Origin: Saccharopolyspora rhizosphaerae
GTDB lineage: Bacteria > Actinomycetota > Actinomycetes > Mycobacteriales > Pseudonocardiaceae
Reading direction: 5' to 3'
NCBI RefSeq assembly: GCF_003931915.1
Contig: NZ_RSAA01000008.1
Coordinates: 186,001-250,000, forward strand
Length of the DNA: 64,000 nucleotides
Shown: positions 28,252 through 54,210 of the stretch, in pieces
Numbering within the stretch: position 1 is the first letter of the stretch
Layout: every line of letters begins with the position of its first letter
The notes under the pieces: generated by a model
The model's database searches: none
Told to the model about the DNA's origin: nothing
What the model saw: only the letters and a program-made list of their open reading frames with translations
Program-made: the position numbers and the translations under genes

Positions 28252-28327
28252 GCCCCCGTAGCCCAACGGCAGAGGCAGCGGACTCAAAATCCGTCCAGTG
28301 TGCGTTCGAATCGCACCGGGGGCACCA
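28252..28327 (+). tRNA. tRNA with anticodon CAA (Leu), integration site
   Basis: Cloverleaf: acceptor GCCCCCG/CGGGGGC, anticodon arm GCGGA-CTCAAAA-TCCGT with anticodon CAA, short variable loop of about five bases, T arm GTGCG/TTCGAAT/CGCAC, discriminator A and encoded CCA. CAA reads the Leu codon UUG, and A73 fits Leu. Odd point: normal bacterial tRNA-Leu has a long variable arm, which is absent here. A -10-like TATGCT is at 28233-28238. The 3' 45 bases are duplicated at the far end of the mobile element. Confidence 0.88.
28281..28325 (+). repeat. Left attachment core (attL)
   Basis: 45 bases from the anticodon stem of the tRNA to the first C of its CCA are identical to 53601-53645. The repeat restores the 3' part of the tRNA, so the gene stays intact after integration. 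Confidence 0.93.
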
Positions 28328-28375
28328 GCCTTCACCAGGCAAAACAACCGAATATGTGGATCATGGAAATGATCC

Positions 28376-28397
28376 TGGGTGCGGCCTTGGGTGCGAG
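28376..28397 (+). promoter_or_regulatory. Candidate integrase arm-type sites, left
   Basis: Two copies of TGGGTGCG start at 28376 and 28388, 12 bases apart, between the attachment core and int. The same pair with the same 12-base spacing is at 53489 and 53501, inside the other end, in the same orientation. In the circular form they would flank the core, as arm sites of tyrosine integrases do. Confidence 0.55.
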
Positions 28398-28410
28398 TAC
28401 ACTCAAGGCC

Positions 28411-29661
28411 ATGAGTCGTTCACACCCCGATGAACGTCAGCGCGGCCGCATCGAGGAGCGCAGCAAGACGCTCCGGGTAGTCGTCTTCGCCGGCAACGAC
28501 CCCGTGACCGGTCGCCGCACCTACCTCCGCGAGACGATCAACGGCACGGACAAGGCCGCCTACAAGCGCGCCGAGAAGGCGCTCACCAAGCTGCTGGCAC
28601 AGGTCGACAGCCAGCGTTCCACCCCGTCGACGGTGAGCCTGTCCTTCGCCCTGGACGAGTGGATGCGCACCAGCGAGATCGAGGACAGCACCCGGCACAC
28701 CTACAGCGGCTACATCGACCGCTCGATCAAGCCCGCTCTCGGCGAGACTGCGGTGAACAAGATTTCCGCGAGGATGCTCGAGGGCTTCTACACCGAGCTT
28801 CGACGCTGCCGCGCTCGCTGCGACGGCAAGCCCTACATCGAGAAGCACAAGAAGCCAGGCGAGCACGACTGCGTCGCCGAGGAATGCCGTCCACACGCGT
28901 GCAAGCCGATGGCTACCTCAACAGTCCGCCAAATCCACGCAATCATCAGCGGCACCCTCGACGCCGCAGAACGCTGGGACTGGATCAGCTCCAACCCAGC
29001 CCGCGTCGCACGGAAACCGCGCCAGAAACGCCCAGAACCCGACCCGCCGACTCCCGCCGAGGCAGCGCGGCTGTCCGAGGAAGCGTTCCGGATGGACGAG
29101 GACTGGGGCACGCTCGTCTGGCTCGCCATGACCACCGGCATGCGCCGCGGAGAACTCGTCGGTCTGCGCTTCTCCCGCGTCGACCTCGATGAGGAAGTCA
29201 TCGACCTTCGCCGTAACTGGGTCCGCGGCAAGGAGAAGGACACCAAGACCCACCAGAACCGCCGCATCGCCCTCGACTCGGAAACGGTCACCCTGCTCCG
29301 CGAACACCGCGACCGCGTCGCCGACCGAGTCCGAGACCTAGGCGGCAAGTTCAACGACGACCTCTACGTTTTCGCCGGCACCCAACACCCCGACCACACC
29401 CAGCCCTACTCCCCCAACGCCATAACCCAGCGCTACAAGGACATGGCCGACCGGCTGGGCATCAAAACCCACCTCCACGCCCTACGCCACTACTCCGCCA
29501 CCGAACTCCTCACCGCAGGCATCGACCTCCCCACAGTCTCCGGCCGTCTCGGACATGGCGGCGGAGGCGCCACCACGCTCCGCGTCTACGCGGCCTGGGT
29601 CGCAGCCTCGGATCGCAAAGCAGCGGAGATCTTGGGGAGTCGCATGCCGAGGCGAAGATGA
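28411..29661 (+). CDS. int: Tyrosine recombinase/integrase
   Basis: 416 aa from ATG 28411; the longer frame runs back through the tRNA and is not coding. The N-terminal arm-binding region is followed by a core-binding SAM-like domain (about 75-200) with a Cys/His-rich insertion at about 130-170, and the catalytic domain. Catalytic residues are Arg245 (TTGMRRGEL), His356 and Arg359 (HLHALRHY), His382 (GHGGGG) and Tyr393 (LRVYAAW). It integrates the element into the tRNA and, with Xis, excises it. It reads away from the attachment core. A decayed copy with about 90 percent identical DNA lies beyond the right core. Confidence 0.95.
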   Translation: MSRSHPDERQRGRIEERSKTLRVVVFAGNDPVTGRRTYLRETINGTDKAAYKRAEKALTKLLAQVDSQRSTPSTVSLSFALDEWMRTSEIEDSTRHTYSGYIDRSIKPALGETAVNKISARMLEGFYTELRRCRARCDGKPYIEKHKKPGEHDCVAEECRPHACKPMATSTVRQIHAIISGTLDAAERWDWISSNPARVARKPRQKRPEPDPPTPAEAARLSEEAFRMDEDWGTLVWLAMTTGMRRGELVGLRFSRVDLDEEVIDLRRNWVRGKEKDTKTHQNRRIALDSETVTLLREHRDRVADRVRDLGGKFNDDLYVFAGTQHPDHTQPYSPNAITQRYKDMADRLGIKTHLHALRHYSATELLTAGIDLPTVSGRLGHGGGGATTLRVYAAWVAASDRKAAEILGSRMPRRR

Positions 29662-29703: not shown

Positions 29704-30354
29704 CTAGTTTGCTGCTGCACGCCCAATCACGATTAACGCTCCTACCCATGAAGAGAATCTACTAACACCTCCCGGGAGGCGAGCCCGTAAGCTCCTCTGA
29801 GTATCTCCCGTATCCGCCCAAAACTGCCCCACCTCCCGTAGGTTATTGTGATTTTTATGCGCTATAAAATTTCGGACAGTCTGCAGTTCAGGTATAGGAT
29901 TGGCGATATCAATCCCATTCTCCGAACGTATGGAAGAAATCGTGACGGCGCCAACCACAGCCGGACTATTTCCAAGCTGTAGCACCCTGCAAAGATCGGG
30001 GACTGCGTCAATCGAATACCATGGAGGCTCACCCTTTACAACGTTTGCGCGAATATTCTTCTTCTTTTTCTCGAGTTGAATCTGCAAGAGCGAGTCAGAT
30101 TCGCTGCGCGACTGCATTGGCCGGTAAACCCGTCCAGACAATCCTTCGCATGGCCCTTTGGCGGACGACAACAAGAGAGAACGCATGAAGCGGTTCCACG
30201 CGTCCCACACTGAAATAACGCACCCGTCTTCAACGGCGCCGTATCGGATGGAGAAGCCGCTTACACAATCATGCCCATCAGCCTCTTCGAATACTTTCTC
30301 TATCTCGCGAAGTTCGCGTTCAAACTCATCGACCACTTCTCGCAAGGAACTCAC
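29704..30354 (-). CDS. Putative HEPN-domain protein paired with DUF262 gene
   Basis: 216 aa from GTG 30354, nine bases after the DUF262 gene on the same strand, so one operon. No family is certain. The C-terminal part has ELQTVRNFIAHKN with Arg161, Asn162 and His166 in the R-N-x3-H arrangement of HEPN ribonucleases, followed by a helical tail. A basic patch EKKKKN is at about 95-100. HEPN proteins often act as RNA-cleaving toxins. Base composition is much lower in GC than the rest of the element, suggesting recent acquisition. It is probably the effector of a two-gene defence or toxin-antitoxin unit; this is inference. Confidence 0.6.
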   Translation of the reverse strand: MSSLREVVDEFERELREIEKVFEEADGHDCVSGFSIRYGAVEDGCVISVWDAWNRFMRSLLLSSAKGPCEGLSGRVYRPMQSRSESDSLLQIQLEKKKKNIRANVVKGEPPWYSIDAVPDLCRVLQLGNSPAVVGAVTISSIRSENGIDIANPIPELQTVRNFIAHKNHNNLREVGQFWADTGDTQRSLRARLPGGVSRFSSWVGALIVIGRAAAN

Positions 30355-30363
30355 AAGTACACA

Positions 30364-31425
30364 TCACCTTGCACTCAACGCCTGATAGAAGTACTCAAAT
30401 CGAACTTGCCTGCTTTTCATGCGTTGCGTAGATGATCGCGCAGCCTCAACAAAGTGGATATAGGGATTATTCCCGTCCTCGTCCTCTGAGTTTCCTTGGA
30501 GCGCTGCGTTCAGTTTCGAGATTTGGTCAACAGTCGCCATTTCGTCTAGCGGAGCATTCGGAACTGGCGGAAAGTCGCTCGAATCTATCCGCCCTGGCGC
30601 CACGTCGCCGCGCATATACGCCAACGTCGCCAGAAGGATAAGGAAATGGGGTCGCTGGACAATTCGTTCCGATTTGAATTGCCCAAGAAGATCGACCACC
30701 TCGCTGATATAGCCTTCAACCTTCTTCTGGTCAGGCAGTTCAGATGCGGTAGCCGATTTCATCCGCTCGTAGAATTTCGTGATTCGAGACTCTCCTCCGT
30801 CACCGATCCCATCAACAAAGAATATGTAAATTTCAGCAATGAGGGAGTGGTCGTTCATCCGCACACGATCCCGCTGAGAAACCGGATTCAGAGACCAAAG
30901 CGACTTAGCGTTGGATACTGTGGATTTAACGAGGCCAGCGAACTCGGTATCAAATCGAGCATTCCTCAACTCAGGCTCATTGACGGGGACAGTGTAAGAA
31001 TTGATTCGGGCGAATACTTCCAGTACGTCATCGTCTGATGCATTCATTAGCTGCTCCGAAGTCAACCTATAGCTAAGGAAGCGGTCCTGCAGCTCCTCAC
31101 TCAAATCGGCATAGCGACAACCAGCGAATTCACCAGCCTTTCCCCCAAGGGGGAATTTCCCATTTGCGAAATCAATAATTGTCCGCAGTCGCTGTTGGCC
31201 GTCGACCACATCCCGTATAGTTCGCTTTAGTTCCCTGTCGATTCGTGTCCGCATAAGAATCTTCGGTATGGGATAACCGCGCAAAATCGAATCGATAAGA
31301 TATGTACGCGCAGCCGAAACCCACACTGAGCCGCGCTGAAACTTCGGGTTCAGCTCAAGCTCTTTGTCATGCGCCCACTTAAGAAAGTCAGCGATAGGGT
31401 AGTGCTCCGGGTTGCTACCTTCCAC
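30364..31425 (-). CDS. DUF262 (ParB/Srx-fold NTPase-like) protein
   Basis: 353 aa from GTG 31425, which has GGAGG four bases upstream; TTG 31455 would add ten residues. The N-terminal 200 residues fit DUF262: LNPKFQRGSVW near residue 26, YLIDSILRGYPIPKI, and the signature VVDGQQRLRTIIDF with DGQQR at 75-79. DUF262 proteins such as GmrS and the N-part of SspE bind or hydrolyse nucleotides and sense DNA modification in phage defence. The HNH (DUF1524) nuclease half found in GmrSD and SspE is absent; the HEPN-like gene follows instead. The region is low in GC. Confidence 0.82.
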   Translation of the reverse strand: MEGSNPEHYPIADFLKWAHDKELELNPKFQRGSVWVSAARTYLIDSILRGYPIPKILMRTRIDRELKRTIRDVVDGQQRLRTIIDFANGKFPLGGKAGEFAGCRYADLSEELQDRFLSYRLTSEQLMNASDDDVLEVFARINSYTVPVNEPELRNARFDTEFAGLVKSTVSNAKSLWSLNPVSQRDRVRMNDHSLIAEIYIFFVDGIGDGGESRITKFYERMKSATASELPDQKKVEGYISEVVDLLGQFKSERIVQRPHFLILLATLAYMRGDVAPGRIDSSDFPPVPNAPLDEMATVDQISKLNAALQGNSEDEDGNNPYIHFVEAARSSTQRMKSRQVRFEYFYQALSAR

Positions 31426-31594
31426 ATTTCCTCCAAAACCTTCACTTTTGATCAATCATACCTCGACACACGCCGACGTAGTCATCTTTCAGTAAGAGTG
31501 CTACGCGACCTCCAAAGCGCCCTCGGCATTAGAGTCCATTGCTCACGAGCTTCTCGCTTGCAAGAGTCCAGCTCTCGCCCCGTAGGCTGCGCGT

Positions 31595-46450: not shown

Positions 46451-46897
46451 ATGAACGTCAAGCGACCTCAACAAGTCGATCCGGTAGTCAGCAACCGGAT
46501 GAGCCGTGTGCGCGGTCGCGACACCAAGCCGGAAATCGCCATACGGTCCGAACTTCATCGGCGGGGCCTCAGGTTTCGGGTGCATCAGCGTCCCATCGAG
46601 TCCTTTCGTCGCACGGCCGACATCGTGTTTCGACCAGCCATGGTGGCCGTCATGATCGACGGGTGTTACTGGCACGGATGTCCCGACCACTATCGACCTT
46701 CGACGAAGAATTCGGCCTTCTGGCAGGAAAAGATCGCATTGAACCTCAAGCGTGACCAGGAGACGAACGAGGCCCTACAAGAGGCGGGGTGGCTGGTTCT
46801 GCGATTTTGGGAGCATGAAAGCCCCGTCAGCGTTTCGGACCGAATTCAGGAGTTGGTCACGGATCGGCGCGCGAGCCGTCGACATGAGAGGCGATAA
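46451..46897 (+). CDS. vsr: Very short patch repair endonuclease (Vsr)
   Basis: 148 aa from ATG 46451. The Vsr fold is clear: SRVRGRDTKPEIAIRSELHRRG near the N-terminus, the metal site ADIVFRPAMVAVMIDGCYWHGCPDH at about 57-81 (catalytic Asp, zinc-binding Cys/His), and GWLVLRFWEHE near 112. Vsr nicks at T:G mismatches arising from deaminated 5-methylcytosine. Its usual partner, a C5 cytosine methyltransferase, is encoded 325 bases away on the other strand. Its last 41 bases overlap, tail to tail, the 121 aa gene. It may repair or be a nuclease of the restriction set. Confidence 0.92.
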   Translation: MNVKRPQQVDPVVSNRMSRVRGRDTKPEIAIRSELHRRGLRFRVHQRPIESFRRTADIVFRPAMVAVMIDGCYWHGCPDHYRPSTKNSAFWQEKIALNLKRDQETNEALQEAGWLVLRFWEHESPVSVSDRIQELVTDRRASRRHERR

Positions 46898-47222
46898 TTT
46901 CTTTATCGCGTACAATCTGCCATGCCTGCCGAAGATTTTCCTCGCGCGTATCACGGGTGACCTCGCCAACGTATTTGACGCTGGTCTCCCCATCGCATGA
47001 GTAGCGGAGGTTCGCATAGATTCTACGTCTATTCGGCTGTCGTTTAAGCTCGATCGACGCACGTACCTCTCGACCATCAGGGAGGACCACCAGCCGGGCG
47101 TTGCGCCCACCAGCAGCACGATCTTGTTCCAACGCCAAGTCGCGGGCCGAGCGTCTTCCTTGCGAAATCGGCTTCCAAGCTCGCTCATCCGGAACTTCAT
47201 GCCGCCAGAGTGGATGTGCCAT
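46857..47222 (-). CDS. Small protein of the methyltransferase/MORC operon, unknown
   Basis: 121 aa from ATG 47222, which shares one base with the stop of the methyltransferase gene, so the two are coupled. A basic N-terminal half (HEVPDERAWKPISQGRRSARDLALEQDR) is followed by a strand-rich half (ARLVVLPDGREVRASIELKRQ, then RRIYANLRYSCDGETSVKYVGEV). No known family. As the last gene of the operon it may be a small DNA-binding or specificity subunit. The convergent overlap with vsr is unusual. Confidence 0.65.
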   Translation of the reverse strand: MAHPLWRHEVPDERAWKPISQGRRSARDLALEQDRAAGGRNARLVVLPDGREVRASIELKRQPNRRRIYANLRYSCDGETSVKYVGEVTRDTREENLRQAWQIVRDKEIIASHVDGSRADP

Positions 47223-48541
47223 CACCCCGCCCAATTGATGTCGAGATCTGGTCGAAGCGCTCGCGCGACCGCTTTGGCGAATATCGCCCCGAGATCGACC
47301 GGAACGGCATTGCCCAACTGACGCATCTGTTCACCACGGGGACCGGCGAATCGCCACGTGTCAGGAAAGGTCATCACTCTAGCCGCTTCGCGGACGGTCA
47401 TGTAGCGGTGAGATCCATTGTCCTCCAGAAGCACGGTCTCTCCGCCGGGAACGCCATGCACGCCAGCCTTGACCGTCTTGGCTGGGCGATCAAGAAGATT
47501 CGGGGTATGCCCCTTATAGATCCGCGCCCCCGGCCACCCGATATGGTGGTGGTAACCTTTTAGCTCCTCGCCCACAATCGGCTTCGGTAGGTCGCCGATG
47601 GCGTCGCGCAAGGTAACCCATGGCTTTTTCCCATCGTCGGTAACATGCCGACGACGAGCACGCTCAATGAGTTCATCGTTCGGCGCTAATCCTCGTTTCT
47701 TCCAATAGCTACCGTCGAGTTGACTAATAAACAACGCCGTCTCACTGTGCTGTTTTCTTGGCTCCTTCCAGTCCACTGCAAGATCCTTGCGAAACGCAAC
47801 GATGATGACTCGTTGCCTGATCTGCGGAACACCGTAGTCTGCGGCGTTCACAGGTATCGGCAGTACCTCGTAACGCTGGGTGAGATCACTACCTTCCTTC
47901 TTGAGGGCTCGACGAAGACGGGCGTCGTGTTCGTACCACGGCTCGCCCTCTTTGCGCTCTTCAAACGGAGCGCGCAGCTCGTTCAGGATGTACTCGAAAT
48001 AGGGCGCGAACGACGGCCTCAGCAGACCGCGAACGTTCTCGCACAAGATCGCTTTGGGCCGTGTCTCCCGGACGACCGCGAAAAGCTCCGGAAACATGTT
48101 CCGTTCGTCCTCGTGGCCCTTCGCGACGCCCCCCAGACTGAAGGGCTGGCAGGGTGGGCCGCCAGCCACGACATCTACCTTCTCGACCAGACCTTTGAAT
48201 ACTTCATCATTTATGGCCGTACGGATGTCATTCTCGATCAGCGGCCACGGCGAATTCAGTGCCTCCGGAACCAGGTCTCCCGTCTTCCAGTCCTTGGCCC
48301 CGTTAAGACGAAGAGTCTCGCAAGCACGCTTGGCCACCTCGTTGGTGAGCAGATGACGAAATCCGGCGCGGTGCATTCCCTGAGCGAGCCCGCCGCCACC
48401 AGCGAACAGCTCGATGCTGGTCCCCACCTCGCGGTGCATCGAACTCGCGCTGATGGGCACCGTGTCGTCGGAGGTCTTGACGTCGAACAGGGTGTCGGTT
48501 ACCTGAGGCACCTGGTGACTGTACCGCGGAGGGGTGATCAT
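47222..48541 (-). CDS. dcm: C5 cytosine DNA methyltransferase (Dcm type)
   Basis: 439 aa from ATG 48541; this start has no clear ribosome-binding site and an internal GTG is possible. All main motifs are present: I ELFAGGGG (about 44), IV GGPPCQPFS with catalytic Cys131, VI ENVRG, VIII QIRQRV and X GNAVP near the C-terminus. The target recognition region lies between VIII and X. It methylates cytosine C5 in a sequence that cannot be predicted. It follows the 200 aa gene by 35 bases and is coupled to the 121 aa gene. In this operon it should protect host DNA. Confidence 0.93.
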   Translation of the reverse strand: MITPPRYSHQVPQVTDTLFDVKTSDDTVPISASSMHREVGTSIELFAGGGGLAQGMHRAGFRHLLTNEVAKRACETLRLNGAKDWKTGDLVPEALNSPWPLIENDIRTAINDEVFKGLVEKVDVVAGGPPCQPFSLGGVAKGHEDERNMFPELFAVVRETRPKAILCENVRGLLRPSFAPYFEYILNELRAPFEERKEGEPWYEHDARLRRALKKEGSDLTQRYEVLPIPVNAADYGVPQIRQRVIIVAFRKDLAVDWKEPRKQHSETALFISQLDGSYWKKRGLAPNDELIERARRRHVTDDGKKPWVTLRDAIGDLPKPIVGEELKGYHHHIGWPGARIYKGHTPNLLDRPAKTVKAGVHGVPGGETVLLEDNGSHRYMTVREAARVMTFPDTWRFAGPRGEQMRQLGNAVPVDLGAIFAKAVARALRPDLDINWAG

Positions 48542-48576
48542 GCTTCGAAGGCGCGCCGAGGGGCCGGCTGTTGGAG

Positions 48577-49179
48577 TCACAGCTCGATGTGCTCCACCTG
48601 GAGCTGGCAACGCTGGACAATGCGTCTGTGCAGTGCCTTCGTGTCGGCGGCTACGGGCTTCTCGAAGGTCTCGGTCACCGCTAACACCCACGAGCGGTGG
48701 TCGTCCGACTCGACGGCCTCTAACGCAGCCCACAGAAGATGCTTGAAGTTTTCGGAACTAGCCCAGGCAATGATGCGCGCATCGACTTCCTCACCATGGA
48801 AGGGTGGATGGACCACCATCCGCATCGGTTTCTCGGTAATGGAGTCTGGATCGGGGATCCAACCGGGAAGCGTCAGCCTGACGATCTTCTCGGCGAGCTG
48901 TTGCCGTTCTGCGGCGGGATCGTGGCTCCCTCCCAGCAAGCGAGCGTAGGGGCCATGACCGATCTTGGCGCGAGGCCACTCTTTGACCGGTCCGTCCTTG
49001 ATCCAGTGACGGGGATCGTCCTTGAAGTTCGCGATGATAGCCCCAATCTCGGAATCGTTGTTCCAAAGATCGTATTGTCGGGACCTATCACGAGCACTCA
49101 GTTCGTCCCAGTCAATCGAGCGCATATCGGCATAGATACGGCGGACAACACGGTCACGCACGTCCCTGGGAAGTGACAT
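48577..49179 (-). CDS. Unknown 200 aa protein between helicase and methyltransferase
   Basis: 200 aa from ATG 49179, four bases after the helicase stop. No known domain. It starts with a helical part (RDVRDRVVRRIYADMRSIDWDEL), has a basic/aromatic centre (PRHWIKDGPVKEWPRAKIGHGPYARLLGG) and a mixed alpha/beta C-terminal half (MRMVVHPPFHGEEVDARIIAWAS). Several His, Asp and Lys residues in GHGPYARLLGG could be functional. Its fixed place in a tight operon argues for an essential part of the system. Confidence 0.7.
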   Translation of the reverse strand: MSLPRDVRDRVVRRIYADMRSIDWDELSARDRSRQYDLWNNDSEIGAIIANFKDDPRHWIKDGPVKEWPRAKIGHGPYARLLGGSHDPAAERQQLAEKIVRLTLPGWIPDPDSITEKPMRMVVHPPFHGEEVDARIIAWASSENFKHLLWAALEAVESDDHRSWVLAVTETFEKPVAADTKALHRRIVQRCQLQVEHIEL

Positions 49180-49183
49180 AAGT

Positions 49184-50854
49184 TTAGTTCACGCTCGCTG
49201 ATACGTCGGGGAATTGCAGGTGGACCTCATCGGCGGAGGTCTCCAGGTCAGCAGCATCGCGTATCCATTGATCGAGCAGCGAGCCCACCGAGGCATCAGT
49301 GAATTCAATCTTGTTTCCCCTGGCAAGGGGAAGGTTGAGCGTTTCGGTATCACCGACGTTGAGAGACCGGCGCAGCCGGAGCGCAGCGGCGACACGGCGG
49401 ATGTCGGAGACGAAGTCAAGGGCGAGCAAGGATTCCTTGCCATCCCGCAACCTCAAACCGCGGCCCAGCTGCTGAACGAAGATCCGGCGGCTGTGCGTGA
49501 CGCGAAGGAAGGCGATGATGTTGACATCCGGGACGTCGACTCCCTCGTTGAACACGTCTACGGTCGTCAGGATTGGGACACGCCCCAACCGGAACGAATT
49601 CAGAAGGATCTGTCGATGTTGCTTGGGGACGCCGCTGTGTAGTGCTGCGGCGCGCGCCCAGGCCGGATCGGAGGAGGCGAGGAGTTCAGCCATGCGCTCA
49701 GCATGCTCGATCGTCTGACAAAAGACGATTCCGCGGGGCTCGTGGATACCTCGCCACGCCTCTCGCAGGTAGTCAATTACGACCTCGTCTCGTTGCGGCA
49801 GGAAGAGTTTGCTGTTCAGCTCCCGAATCGTGTGGCCCTGCCGACTGGCCGCCGCGACAAAGTCCCAGTCCAGATCGTCTACGAAAAGACGATAATCGAC
49901 CTTGACGAGATGGCCTTCACGCATCCCCTCCTCGATGCCCATCGTGAAGCTGGCAGCGCCGAAGTGGTCCTCGATATCGAATTTGTCGCCTCGCCATGGG
50001 GTCGCCGTGACACCGAATTGCAGTGCTCCGGCACAAGCTTCGAGCAGCATCTGATACATACCCGCAGCACCGACATGATGTGTCTCGTCAATCATGATCA
50101 GGTTCGGCTTGTAACCGTCAGCAACCAGGCCGAGCGCGGAATCTATGGTCGCGCAGGTAACGCCGTCGAACGCGGTGGGCTTCCGCTCGCTGGTCAAAAC
50201 CTGCGTCGAGACTGTTTTGGGCAAGTGCCGCCACAAAGATCGTTCTAGTTGTTCGACCAGTTCGCGCATGTGCGCTACGACGAGGATTCGATCGTGTGGG
50301 TGCTCGTCGAGGTGTTGGCGGATGACTTCCCCACCGACCATGGTCTTGCCGAGCCCGGTAGCAAGGACCAGCAGCGCGCGTTGGCGCTGGGCGAGATCCT
50401 CCCTCAGTCTTGTGATAGCGCGCTTTTGATACTTCCTGGGCCGTAGTCGTGATGGCACATCGGTCGACATCCGCTCGCCGATTGAAGCCAAAGTCTTACC
50501 GTTCCATACGTCGATCTTGATTCCGACGTCGTCAAGGATCTTTCGTCGACTCTCCGCGCCCCGGCTGAGCGCTCCGTTCGTGGCGAGCACGCACTTGTCA
50601 GCCTCGTAGCGGGTCTTAGCGCGCTCGCAATCGTCGATGCCAACACGATCAATGGTGCCTCGACTCGTCCACTTGGACTGGACGACCCACTGCTGACCGT
50701 TCCGAACAGCCAGTAGGTCAGCTCCTCCATCATCACGGCCATCCACTACCCGCACGTCAACAAAGCCTAGGTGCCACAGTGCCCGTTCCAGCGCATGGGT
50801 CAGACCCCGCGGACCGTCGGCCAAGAGCTTTCGAGAATCCAGGAAATTGGTCAT
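49184..50854 (-). CDS. Mrr-type nuclease fused to SF2 helicase
   Basis: 556 aa from ATG 50854, overlapping the stop of the GHKL gene. Residues 15-115 are an Mrr-like restriction endonuclease domain: GADLLAV with Asp46, then QSKW with Gln59 and Lys61, the QxK variant of PD-(D/E)xK. Residues 135-530 are a superfamily 2 helicase: Walker A TGLGKT (about 166-171), DETH (256-259), GVTATPWR and QLGRGLR. Such fusions are typical of ATP-dependent restriction. With the GHKL ATPase it probably forms the translocating and cutting engine. Confidence 0.88.
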   Translation of the reverse strand: MTNFLDSRKLLADGPRGLTHALERALWHLGFVDVRVVDGRDDGGADLLAVRNGQQWVVQSKWTSRGTIDRVGIDDCERAKTRYEADKCVLATNGALSRGAESRRKILDDVGIKIDVWNGKTLASIGERMSTDVPSRLRPRKYQKRAITRLREDLAQRQRALLVLATGLGKTMVGGEVIRQHLDEHPHDRILVVAHMRELVEQLERSLWRHLPKTVSTQVLTSERKPTAFDGVTCATIDSALGLVADGYKPNLIMIDETHHVGAAGMYQMLLEACAGALQFGVTATPWRGDKFDIEDHFGAASFTMGIEEGMREGHLVKVDYRLFVDDLDWDFVAAASRQGHTIRELNSKLFLPQRDEVVIDYLREAWRGIHEPRGIVFCQTIEHAERMAELLASSDPAWARAAALHSGVPKQHRQILLNSFRLGRVPILTTVDVFNEGVDVPDVNIIAFLRVTHSRRIFVQQLGRGLRLRDGKESLLALDFVSDIRRVAAALRLRRSLNVGDTETLNLPLARGNKIEFTDASVGSLLDQWIRDAADLETSADEVHLQFPDVSASVN

Positions 50855-53178
50855 CGCTCCGGCGCCAGTTCGTCGAGTAGGAGTTGCATGCTCAATCGCG
50901 TGCGCTTTAGACGCAGTTCGCCAGGGTCGTACTGCTGGGCGAGAGCGGCGACGTCGGCCAGCAGCGAGGTGACTTGCGAGACGGATTGCCGCTTTCCAGC
51001 GGCAGAGGTGACTCCGTTATAGGGAGAACGGAATACTTTACCGTCGAGGAACATCTCCGGAATCTCCTCGACCAGTCGCACGAGGAACAGACTTGGGGCG
51101 TAGCGAACGAACGGCGCCTCATCCATAGGCCCAGCGCCTCGGCTGCCACTGGCGATCATGGCGTTCTCGGTGGCCATGAGTTCATCGTCAGTGAGGTATT
51201 GGAACGCTCGTTCTGGTTCGTCCTCGATCTCTTCCGCCATTCGGTTCCGAACCTCAGCGAGAAGATCGTCGGCCTGCGCCTTTATCGTGCGAACGTCGAT
51301 CGCGGTGTCTTGCATCGACTTTTCCTTAACCATCGAAATGGTCTCGGAAATCGACAAATCGGACCCAGCCCTCGCCCGTAGCAGTCCCGCCAACTCAGTG
51401 ACGATGGCATCCTCGTAGGACCATCCGAAACGCACGAAGAGCGGGTGGCGCCGATTCACGAAGGCCGTCGCGGACCCTCCCGAACCGGGAACAACCCGGG
51501 CAGCGGTCTCCTTACCATTGGCGTCCAGCAACCGCTGATCCACGGAGAACGCATCGACCTTTATGAACCCAAGGTCGGGATGCCCAAGGTCGCCGGCCAG
51601 TTCGGCGATGGGCCTACCTTCCTCCTTATAGCGCGCGATTCGCTGTTGGTCAGTCTCAGGCTTCGGTGCGGATGGCGCGGGAGTGGGCGCCGTTACTGCG
51701 CCAACGGCCTCCGACCCGTCATTCGATTCATCCAGCCCGAGCGCGTCGTCCACCGCCGCCTCGTCGACCGCCCCACCTTCGGCTGGGTCAGGTTTCGGCC
51801 GCGCAGCTTCGGCCTTGCGCCTTTCATGCTCGAGAACCTGTTCCCACCACTTCGCATCCGTCTGGTATTCGGCAGCCCCTTTGTGAAACTCCTGCCCCCA
51901 ACGGAAGGCGGTCGAGTGCACCGCCTTCTGACCATCTCCAGGGACCAGGTAGCGCTTCCCCGGGTCGTTCCGTCGAAAGCCGCGATGAAGCCGAGCGAGG
52001 GGGCTGTTATTCGGCTCGTGCCAGCCGAGGTCCTTGGCCTTGTCTGGCAACATGGGACCTCGCCCGCGGAGATACTCAATCGCGCGCCGCCACTGCGGGT
52101 CCGACTTGTCGAAAGTGTCCTTCTTGTAGTCGACCCGCACGTGATCGAGGTGGATCTCACCAACAATACGCCCGCCCTGGCCGAGTTCAATCGGGTACTC
52201 CCTTATGACACGGGAAGTCGGATCGTTGATGTCAGTCCACTGGAAGATGTCCTTGTAGTTAGTAAGGATCTTGCGCCCATTACGAAGGAAATCAATGCCA
52301 AATTCGTCGTTGTCGAGGTAACGTTGAATTCCCACCCATCCATGCATGCGCCGCTTGCGAGGTTTGAGATGTTCGGACTTCCCACAGTTCTCGCACGTAT
52401 TAAGCCCCTGCTGCTGCCAGTGCCCACAATCCATACAGGCGTCGGCGGGCGAGTAGGACTCGTCGATTTCGATAACTGCGGGGATCTGCTCCGACCGCGA
52501 ACCGCTGCCGTAGGTGACGCTCCTGTTCTTGCCCCACGCGCAGTGGCGCCGGGGCTTGACCTCGACGCCAGCGACCCACAGCTCAAAGGGACGATGCTCT
52601 AGCAACCATCCGTAGACCCTGCCAAACTGGGCACGCAAGGCTTTCCCATTCCGTGCAAGCCAATCAAGACGCACGGGATCGAGCCTGCTGATTTCGATCT
52701 TTGTGCCGTGTTCCGACGGATCGTTCTTGGGTTCGACGATGTCGGGCGCCTCGAAGTCGTCCCCAATCTCGTCCAGGTCGATTTCTACGCCGATCCACTG
52801 CGGATCTCCCGCCCGCGTCGTCAGCACGCGGGTCTTTCGCCCGAGCCGCGCCGTGCTCACGTTGAACCCCATCCCGAAGAGACCCAGCTTGTCGAACTGG
52901 TTGTTACTCGACCATCCGGCGCGGACGGCATCCGCGAGACGCTCCCTCGTCATCCCCCGTCCGCTGTCCCGGACGACGATCTCGGCGTCAGCAGGCCGGA
53001 CGTTGGACTTCGGGAGCGTCACGCTGACTTTCATCCCACCGGCCCACCGGATGTCAGAGGTGATGATCTCGTTGAAGTCATCGAAGGCGTTGTCGATCAA
53101 CTCCGCGAGACACTTCCACTCCTCGATCTCGATCTCACCTAGCATGCGGAGAATCCGCGCGGAGGGTGTGATCTGCAC
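50851..53178 (-). CDS. MORC-like GHKL ATPase with zinc ribbon
   Basis: 775 aa from GTG 53178; GAGGGAG lies nine bases upstream. The N-terminal GHKL domain has ELIDNAFDD (Glu26, Asn30), VVRDSGRGM (Asp71) and GLFGMGFN (99-106), as in MutL and MORC ATPases. An S5-like domain follows, interrupted by a zinc ribbon with Cys248, Cys251, Cys262 and Cys265. The C-terminal half is helical and unassigned (about 480-775). Bacterial MORC-like ATPases have been described in restriction-modification loci with helicases, methylases and Vsr-like nucleases, and this operon has that set. First gene of the operon. Confidence 0.85.
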   Translation of the reverse strand: MQITPSARILRMLGEIEIEEWKCLAELIDNAFDDFNEIITSDIRWAGGMKVSVTLPKSNVRPADAEIVVRDSGRGMTRERLADAVRAGWSSNNQFDKLGLFGMGFNVSTARLGRKTRVLTTRAGDPQWIGVEIDLDEIGDDFEAPDIVEPKNDPSEHGTKIEISRLDPVRLDWLARNGKALRAQFGRVYGWLLEHRPFELWVAGVEVKPRRHCAWGKNRSVTYGSGSRSEQIPAVIEIDESYSPADACMDCGHWQQQGLNTCENCGKSEHLKPRKRRMHGWVGIQRYLDNDEFGIDFLRNGRKILTNYKDIFQWTDINDPTSRVIREYPIELGQGGRIVGEIHLDHVRVDYKKDTFDKSDPQWRRAIEYLRGRGPMLPDKAKDLGWHEPNNSPLARLHRGFRRNDPGKRYLVPGDGQKAVHSTAFRWGQEFHKGAAEYQTDAKWWEQVLEHERRKAEAARPKPDPAEGGAVDEAAVDDALGLDESNDGSEAVGAVTAPTPAPSAPKPETDQQRIARYKEEGRPIAELAGDLGHPDLGFIKVDAFSVDQRLLDANGKETAARVVPGSGGSATAFVNRRHPLFVRFGWSYEDAIVTELAGLLRARAGSDLSISETISMVKEKSMQDTAIDVRTIKAQADDLLAEVRNRMAEEIEDEPERAFQYLTDDELMATENAMIASGSRGAGPMDEAPFVRYAPSLFLVRLVEEIPEMFLDGKVFRSPYNGVTSAAGKRQSVSQVTSLLADVAALAQQYDPGELRLKRTRLSMQLLLDELAPER

Positions 53179-53510: not shown

Positions 53511-53600
53511 CTACAGCTGAGACTGCCTCTGGAACGACACACCTCCCACCCGCTTCGCTTCGTTCGCCCAGGCAATACACCAGAGCCACAACGTGAAGCC

Positions 53601-53645
53601 GACTCAAAATCCGTCCAGTGTGCGTTCGAATCGCACCGGGGGCAC
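53601..53645 (+). repeat. Right attachment core (attR)
   Basis: 45-base exact copy of 28281-28325 (3' part of the tRNA). The bases before it do not continue the tRNA; the bases after it continue the similarity to the left side for about 40 more bases and then into a decayed integrase. Confidence 0.93.
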
Positions 53646-53729
53646 GAGCCTTCACCAGGCAAAACAACAGAACATGTGGATCATGGTGTTGGTCCTGTGT
53701 GCGGCCCCGGGGGCGGGTACCTCAAGACC

Positions 53730-54145
53730 AACAGTCGTTGACGACTAGATAAGAGTCAGCGTGGCCGCATCGAGGAGCGCAGCAAGACGCTCCGGGTGGT
53801 CGTCTTCGCAGGCAACGACCCGGTGACCGGTCGCCGCACCTACCTTCGCGAGACGATCAACGGCACGGACAAGGCCGCCTACAAGCGCGCCGAGAAGGCC
53901 CTCACCAAGCTGCTGGCACAGGTCGACAACCAGCGCCACACCCCGTCAACCGTGAGCCTGTCCTTCGCCCTGGACGAGTGGATGCGCACCAGCGAGATCG
54001 AAGACAGCACCCGGCACACCTACAGCGGCTACATCGACCGCTCGATCAAACCGGCGCTCGGCGAGACTGCGGTGAACAAGATCCCCGCGAGGATGCCCGA
54101 AGGCTTCTACACCGATCTTCGACGCTGTCGCGCTCGCCGCGACAG
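53730..54145 (+). pseudogene. Truncated, inactivated integrase of an older element
   Basis: Aligns codon by codon with int 28411 over about 139 codons. The start ATG is AAC here (53730-53732), codon 4 is TGA (53739-53741), and another in-frame TAG-like change is nearby; similarity then resumes almost unchanged (RGRIEERSKTLRVVVFAGND). It breaks off near 54145 inside the Cys-rich insertion, so the catalytic domain is missing. Clearly dead. Confidence 0.9.
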
Positions 54146-54210
54146 CAGGTGTGAAGCAACCTCATCGCCAATCTGAGGCCGTACCCGGTTGCGCACGTAC
54201 GGCTCTTGGC

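What the first reader, a model, noticed from the sequence alone, without database searches (positions are those of the whole stretch)
46451..53178. MORC-like ATPase / Mrr-helicase / unknown / Dcm / unknown / Vsr block: candidate unusual restriction system
Seen: five tightly coupled minus-strand genes (GHKL ATPase with zinc ribbon, Mrr-SF2 fusion, 200 aa unknown, C5 methyltransferase, 121 aa unknown) plus a convergent Vsr, on a mobile element. Known: bacterial MORC/MutL-type ATPases have been described in restriction-modification loci with helicases and methylases. Inference: GHKL clamp and helicase sense and process unmethylated DNA; the two unknown proteins may be new subunits. The combination matches no standard Type I-IV layout.
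Basis: partly seen in the sequence, partly recalled or inferred. Interest (0 to 1): 0.88.

Follow-up and report, generated by a model that had tools for sequence, protein, structure and literature searches.

The report
MORC–Mrr-helicase restriction system with Dcm/Vsr
A bacterial gene cluster that most likely cuts incoming DNA lacking the cell's own methyl mark; it belongs to a predicted but, as far as found here, untested class, and comparing about 100 relatives shows it is two separately inherited modules: a cutting machine of three proteins (one a new family) and a marking/repair set.

Summary
They are cargo of a 25.3-kb tRNA-Leu element. The broad class is known: Iyer et al. 2008 predicted MORC + SF2-helicase/RE-fold + Dcm + Vsr restriction operons. 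Found here, from ~100 relatives:
(1) MORC→helicase→P200 is an invariant core (86/86 loci; distance correlations 0.88–0.92). P200 is a third core subunit with a confident model and no convincing fold match.
(2) Dcm and Vsr form a second, exchangeable module (r=0.83; cross-module 0.41–0.61), re-placed at least 22 times.
(3) P121 is probably not a restriction subunit: in 56 loci it is the N-terminal domain of a Vsr fusion.
(4) The Dcm recognition region matches Eco29kI-type enzymes (CCGCGG) and the Deinococcus cassette enzyme, very probably M.DrdVII (YCGCGR).
(5) 20/47 non-redundant loci also carry an Eco29kI-family nuclease; none was detected in this genome.
Best reading: ATP-dependent restriction of DNA unmethylated at a CGCG-core hexamer. 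Restriction itself is inferred, not shown. New variant of a known kind.

The parts
50851..53178 (-). MORC/MutL-type GHKL ATPase with zinc ribbon (core subunit 1, 775 aa)
   Evidence: Pfam HATPase_c_3 1.6e-9; nearest solved proteins MORC3/MORC4; GHKL motifs near-invariant in 74 non-redundant relatives
49184..50854 (-). Mrr-type PD-(D/E)XK nuclease fused to SF2 helicase/translocase (core subunit 2, 556 aa)
   Evidence: Mrr_cat + ResIII + Helicase_C; D46/Q59/K61 and helicase motifs conserved in 66-68 of 68 non-redundant relatives; nearest solved 7CLG (SauUSI), RadD, XPB
48577..49179 (-). P200, new protein family (core subunit 3, 200 aa)
   Evidence: After the helicase on the same strand in 86/86 loci that have both; co-inherited with MORC and helicase, r 0.88-0.90; AF2 pLDDT 94.7; no PDB fold match E<1e-3
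47222..48541 (-). C5-cytosine methyltransferase (module 2), predicted CGCG-core hexamer specificity
   Evidence: Pfam DNA_methylase 2.8e-53; recognition region aligned with Eco29kI-type MTases and the Deinococcus cassette MTase; only C5-MTase found in the genome
46857..47222 (-). P121, stand-alone form of the N-terminal domain of P121-Vsr fusions (module 2, 121 aa)
   Evidence: 61 homologous ORFs, 56 loci with P121 and Vsr in one protein; AF2 helix-3 strands-helix, pLDDT 83.6
46451..46897 (+). Vsr mismatch endonuclease, convergent (module 2)
   Evidence: TIGR00632 vsr 1.5e-32, above curated cut-off
28277..28701 (+). Left boundary repeat of the 25.3-kb element (tRNA-Leu 3' end + integrase 5' part)
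   Evidence: the repeat finder D1/D2, tRNA-Leu 28252-28327, tyrosine integrase
53597..54020 (+). Right boundary repeat, followed by a truncated integrase copy
   Evidence: the repeat finder D1/D2

Best explanation
The locus is an ATP-dependent restriction-modification system made of two modules. Module 2 (C5-MTase, Vsr, P121) marks host DNA with 5-methylcytosine at a CGCG-core hexamer (CCGCGG or YCGCGR) and repairs the T:G mismatches that 5mC deamination creates there; P121 is the auxiliary domain of Vsr. Module 1 (MORC ATPase, Mrr-SF2 helicase, P200) is the restriction arm: the MORC dimer acts as an ATP-gated DNA clamp, P200 is a non-catalytic basic subunit that couples clamp, DNA and nuclease, and the SF2 motor brings the Mrr nuclease onto DNA lacking the mark. 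Shown: gene content, intact active sites, invariant core order, co-inheritance as two modules, P121-Vsr fusion, kinship of the MTase recognition region with known CGCG-hexamer enzymes. Inferred: restriction, sensing of unmethylated sites, the P200 role, and the exact motif.
For: Core order MORC>HEL>P200 on one strand in 86/86 loci; in 47 non-redundant well-covered loci HEL 46, P200 43, MTase 43, Vsr 40. Distance correlations: MORC/HEL 0.92, MORC/P200 0.88, HEL/P200 0.90, MTase/Vsr 0.83, cross-module 0.41-0.61. MTase placement changes at least 22 times on the MORC tree. MTase kept in 23/27 loci without an Eco29kI nuclease, so it is not kept only for that enzyme. MTase recognition region shared with Eco29kI-type enzymes and the Deinococcus cassette MTase; that is the only C5-MTase place on pDrdI, to which M.DrdVII (YCGCGR, 5mC) is assigned (PMC6430315); M.Eco29kI methylates CCGCGG (PMC3039593). 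The closest solved helicase, SauUSI (7CLG), is a demonstrated ATP-driven DNA translocase-nuclease. P200's best-conserved positions are mostly basic (R57, K61, R70, K117).
Against: No biochemical or phage data were found for any member. A few loci lack the MTase or P200. P200 has no informative fold match, so its role is a guess from conservation and context. Distance correlations are inflated by shared ancestry; only the contrast between modules is informative. About 43% of loci also have an Eco29kI nuclease, for which the MTase alone would suffice. Distant viral loci pair the core with MTases of other recognition types, so the core is not tied to one motif.
Confidence: 0.64

Rival explanations
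1. The core is a companion (backup or amplifier) of an Eco29kI-type Type II system rather than a restriction system in its own right: it degrades or arrests DNA after Type II cleavage or when the Type II enzyme is blocked. The window is a reduced copy without the Type II nuclease gene.
For: Eco29kI-family GIY-YIG genes in 20/47 non-redundant loci, always with MTase and P200; catalytic GIY-YIG positions conserved in the seven aligned; near plasmid relatives of the MTase sit in Vsr-MTase-Eco29kI systems without MORC.
Against: More than half of non-redundant loci have no such nuclease, and none was detected in the window's genome (positive control), yet core and MTase stay intact there.
Confidence: 0.18
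2. Modification-dependent (Type IV-like) system: the Mrr domain and helicase attack foreign modified DNA, and the MTase and Vsr are an independent passenger set.
For: Mrr and the SauUSI-like helicase are known from methyl-directed enzymes (PMC7913695); weak co-inheritance of core and MTase.
Against: MTase present in 43/47 non-redundant loci, in many different placements on the MORC tree; a core that cuts 5mC DNA would have to spare the co-encoded mark.
Confidence: 0.1
3. P200 is an adaptor for exchangeable effectors and the system kills or arrests the infected cell rather than only cutting DNA; Mrr and PIN_8 nucleases are alternative payloads.
For: PIN_8 domains fused to a second P200 domain in L038 and L086 and, by sequence, L088; a PIN_8-type gene next to P200 in L014/L015.
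Against: PIN_8 is found in few loci and not in the window block; the Mrr nuclease site is conserved in nearly all.
Confidence: 0.06

Closest known systems
Predicted MORC restriction operons, class 1 (Iyer, Abhiman & Aravind 2008, PMC2292703)
   Same: MORC GHKL ATPase, Rad25-like SF2 helicase fused to an RE-fold nuclease, Dcm and Vsr genes, high mobility
   Different: The text read here describes no P200, no P121-Vsr fusion, no two-module inheritance, no Eco29kI link and no motif; its figures were not viewable
Eco29kI-type Type II restriction-modification (CCGCGG)
   Same: C5-MTase with the same recognition-region signature; Vsr often adjacent; Eco29kI nuclease present in about 43% of related loci
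   Different: No GIY-YIG nuclease detected in this window or genome; an ATP-using three-protein core is present instead
CglI / NgoAVII ATP-dependent systems (PMC4267653)
   Same: Methyltransferase plus ATP-driven helicase and nuclease functions
   Different: Those use a PLD-B3 nuclease and a separate DEAD-Z1 helicase; here Mrr is fused to the helicase, with MORC and P200
SauUSI, ATP-dependent Type IV endonuclease (PMC7913695)
   Same: Nearest solved relative of the helicase domain; translocating SF2 motor fused to a nuclease
   Different: SauUSI is a modification-directed enzyme with a different nuclease domain and no partner MTase (own knowledge); the nuclease here is Mrr-type
MZA and Shedu/paraMORC3 defence proteins
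   Same: GHKL ATPase in a defence context
   Different: MzaB similarity is marginal (E 7e-4); no Z1, AIPR or DUF4263 partner found here

Membership tests
MORC restriction operon, class 1 (Iyer 2008) | GHKL ATPase of MORC type with all nucleotide-binding motifs | tested here: met
   E26, D71, G75, G102, G104 invariant and N30 73/74, T159 73/74; PDB neighbours MORC3/4
MORC restriction operon, class 1 (Iyer 2008) | MORC-specific GhXhhpXXRhl motif in the S5 domain | tested here: inconclusive
   GIDFLRNGRKI at 294-304 fits except K at a hydrophobic position (read)
MORC restriction operon, class 1 (Iyer 2008) | Adjacent Rad25-like SF2 helicase fused to RE-fold nuclease | tested here: met
   Mrr_cat + ResIII + Helicase_C; RadD/XPB/Rad25 among PDB hits
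MORC restriction operon, class 1 (Iyer 2008) | DNA methylase and Vsr genes in the neighbourhood (frequent, not universal) | tested here: met
Type II restriction-modification (Eco29kI) | Cognate C5-MTase with CCGCGG specificity | tested here: inconclusive
   Recognition region aligns with Eco29kI-type and the presumed M.DrdVII; specificity not measured
Type II restriction-modification (Eco29kI) | GIY-YIG Eco29kI nuclease | tested here: not met
   None in the window or genome; same query rings in three positive-control genomes
Type I / Type III | HsdS/HsdM or Mod adenine methylase | tested here: not met
   Block genes show a C5-MTase and no such subunit
Type IV | No cognate methyltransferase | tested here: not met
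   MTase co-encoded and conserved
Type IV | Cuts modified DNA only | not testable with these tools
   Needs biochemical assay
DISARM | DrmA helicase, DrmB and DrmC | tested here: not met
   PADLOC scan shows MTase similarity to DrmMII; no DrmA/B/C among the listed hits
MZA | MutL-like ATPase with Z1 and AIPR partners | tested here: not met
   Only a marginal MzaB hit; no Z1 or AIPR in the block
Any restriction system | Measured restriction of phage or plasmid DNA | not testable with these tools
   Needs experiment

The most novel reading that the evidence does not exclude
P200 founds a new class of adaptor subunit: a MORC clamp plus P200 forms a platform that senses DNA lacking a Type II methyl mark and delivers interchangeable nucleases (Mrr-helicase or PIN_8), acting as an ATP-dependent second line of defence grafted onto, or replacing, Eco29kI-type restriction. 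It would be a MORC restriction system with a defined target and a bacterial model for how MORC ATPases respond to DNA methylation.
Probability: 0.25. Interest if true: 0.82.

Novelty: new variant of a known kind. Interest (0 to 1): 0.62.

Why it matters
Bacterial MORC restriction operons were predicted in 2008, and in the papers searched here none with a worked-out mechanism came up; eukaryotic MORCs, which act in gene silencing, are proposed to derive from them. This work gives such a system a defined three-protein core including a new family, a second exchangeable marking/repair module, a predicted target (CGCG-core hexamer) and cassettes in culturable strains such as Deinococcus wulumuqiensis 479, so the prediction can be tested directly. 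The P121-Vsr fusion also points to an undescribed accessory domain of mismatch repair at methylated sites.

Tried and rejected
P200 as a PD-(D/E)XK nuclease: weak fold resemblances to Ecl18kI, Mus81-Eme1, BstEII and to RPB5-like, endonuclease and resolvase models, all E>1e-3 except one viral hit with TM 0.32, and no acidic residue among the best-conserved positions of the C-terminal half; rejected as a catalytic role. P121 as an AP2/arm-binding or dsRBD domain: topology fits but no PDB match below E 0.1; left open. First-pass iterated profiles mixed P121 and Vsr because of the fusion proteins; redone by domain boundaries. Searches of 397 phylum genomes with P200 and P121 profiles gave only the own genome plus one marginal hit each, too few to test whether P200 occurs outside MORC loci; the viral scan gave one, itself a MORC locus. 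Centring a genome search on a Streptomyces locus was not accepted. DISARM, MZA and Types I/III rejected by family scans. PF09517 rang in no control genome, so an alignment of relatives with positive controls was used instead.

Full report
OBSERVATION. The six genes are present, intact and at the stated places. Five minus-strand genes are packed as MORC (50851-53178), Mrr-SF2 helicase (49184-50854, 4-bp overlap), P200 (48577-49179), C5-MTase (47222-48541) and P121 (46857-47222, overlapping the MTase end). Vsr (46451-46897, plus strand) meets P121 tail to tail with a 41-bp overlap. P200 and P121 match no family in Pfam, NCBIfam, PADLOC or PHROGs, and their relatives give no consistent Pfam hit. 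The block is the right-hand cargo of a 25.3-kb element: the 3' end of tRNA-Leu plus the integrase start is repeated at 28277-28701 and 53597-54020, with an integrase and an FtsK-like gene inside.

RELATIVES. A profile scan of one genome per species found 301 relatives of the MORC protein, of which 80 loci were kept; viral contigs gave 15 strong ones (L098-L112) and plasmids five. Most are Actinomycetota, with others in Deinococcus, alphaproteobacterial plasmids, Chloroflexota, a myxobacterium, a delta-proteobacterium and a spirochaete. In 86 of 86 loci with all three genes the order MORC, helicase, P200 is the same on one strand. In 47 well-covered loci made non-redundant at 85% identity, the helicase is present in 46, P200 in 43, the MTase in 43, Vsr in 40 and an Eco29kI-family GIY-YIG nuclease in 20. 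The sample is biased towards close relatives, because only the best 80 of 301 loci are returned.

TWO MODULES. Across 50 non-redundant loci with all parts, distance matrices of MORC, helicase and P200 correlate at 0.88-0.92 and MTase with Vsr at 0.83, but across the two groups only at 0.41-0.61. On a tree of 64 MORCs the position and strand of the MTase relative to MORC change at least 22 times, while the core order never changes. Shared ancestry inflates all these correlations; the contrast is what matters. So P200 belongs to the core and the MTase-Vsr pair is a separate, exchangeable module.

THE 121-aa PROTEIN. P121 homologues occur in 61 ORFs (the window's included); in 56 loci P121 and Vsr are one protein of about 250-370 aa, with P121 at the N-terminal and Vsr at the C-terminal side. 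Separate P121 genes occur in L018, L043, L044, L055 and here, where the two halves are encoded convergently. By gene-fusion logic P121 works with Vsr. Its model (pLDDT 83.6) is helix, three strands, helix, compatible with a small nucleic-acid-binding fold, but no solved structure matches significantly.

THE 200-aa PROTEIN. The P200 model is confident (pLDDT 94.7): a helical N-terminal half and an alpha/beta C-terminal half. No PDB fold matches at E<1e-3 and viral matches are poor. The best conserved positions are G46, R57, K61, R70, K117 and P118, with K66 and D62 close behind; no acidic residue of the C-terminal half is among them, arguing against a PD-(D/E)XK nuclease. In three loci a second P200 domain follows a PIN_8-type nuclease domain in one protein, and alphaproteobacterial cassettes have a PIN_8-type gene beside P200. 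A non-catalytic coupling subunit is the most economical reading.

TARGET. The region between MTase motifs VIII and IX, where C5-MTases read their site, is shared by the window enzyme, Eco29kI-type MTases and the Deinococcus wulumuqiensis cassette enzyme; two strict patterns drawn from it are both matched by 66 of 94 cassette MTases. M.Eco29kI methylates CCGCGG (PMC3039593). In D. wulumuqiensis 479 the plasmid pDrdI carries M.DrdVII, YCGCGR, 5mC (PMC6430315); the only C5-MTase place found on that plasmid is the gene next to the MORC cassette, so M.DrdVII is very probably that gene (inference). The predicted target here is therefore CCGCGG or YCGCGR. In this genome the cassette MTase is the only C5-MTase found and no Eco29kI nuclease is detectable (positive controls).

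MECHANISM. The helicase's nearest solved relative is SauUSI (7CLG), an SF2 motor shown to translocate DNA and cut it (PMC7913695). The Mrr site (D46, Q59xK61) and helicase motifs are conserved in 66-68 of 68 non-redundant proteins. I propose: the MORC dimer closes as an ATP-gated clamp on DNA, P200 couples clamp and motor, the motor brings the Mrr nuclease to act on DNA lacking the mark, and the MTase protects the host while Vsr with P121 repairs deamination damage at the methylated site. Gene content, active sites and modularity are shown; DNA sensing, clamp action and cleavage are inferred.

COMPARISON. Iyer et al. 2008 (PMC2292703) described MORC operons with Rad25-like helicases fused to RE-fold nucleases, with Dcm and Vsr, and proposed DNA looping between recognition and cleavage sites. 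The system belongs to that predicted class, though one MORC sequence motif fits imperfectly. It does not fit Types I-IV, DISARM or MZA (membership table). What I did not find described in the papers reached is P200, the P121-Vsr fusion, the two-module inheritance, the Eco29kI link and the predicted motif; figures and most subscription papers could not be read, so priority is not certain.

VERDICT. A real, well-conserved restriction-type system of a predicted class, with a new core protein and a testable target: new variant of a known kind, interest 0.62.

Noticed in passing
window 29704-31455 (-): A GmrSD_N/DUF262 gene (30364-31455) with a 216-aa partner of no known family, in a low-GC stretch at the other end of the same element: a second candidate defence pair. 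A cluster of GmrSD_N-type genes also lies near MORC cassettes in six other loci (e.g. L037).
   Followed up: partly
window 53597-54176 (+): Truncated second copy of the element's integrase (about 91% identical at DNA level) at the right boundary, suggesting successive integrations at tRNA-Leu.
   Followed up: partly
L038:5491-7197, L086:14678-16219, L088:14614-16224: PIN_8-type nuclease domains fused to a second P200 domain next to the cassette.
   Followed up: partly
L032:14587-16038 and 23 other loci: Recurrent open frame (483 aa in L032) with a weak sigma-70 region 4 match, overlapping the end of P200 there; may be a gene or an overlapping-frame artefact.
   Followed up: no
L016 (Streptomyces cathayae plasmid): MORC protein with an N-terminal extension annotated as helix-turn-helix and no helicase, P200 or MTase near it.
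   Followed up: no
45 of the related loci, e.g. L020, L066: Two subfamilies of Eco29kI-like GIY-YIG proteins (22 and 23 members), sometimes two genes at one locus; why two kinds exist is unclear.
   Followed up: no
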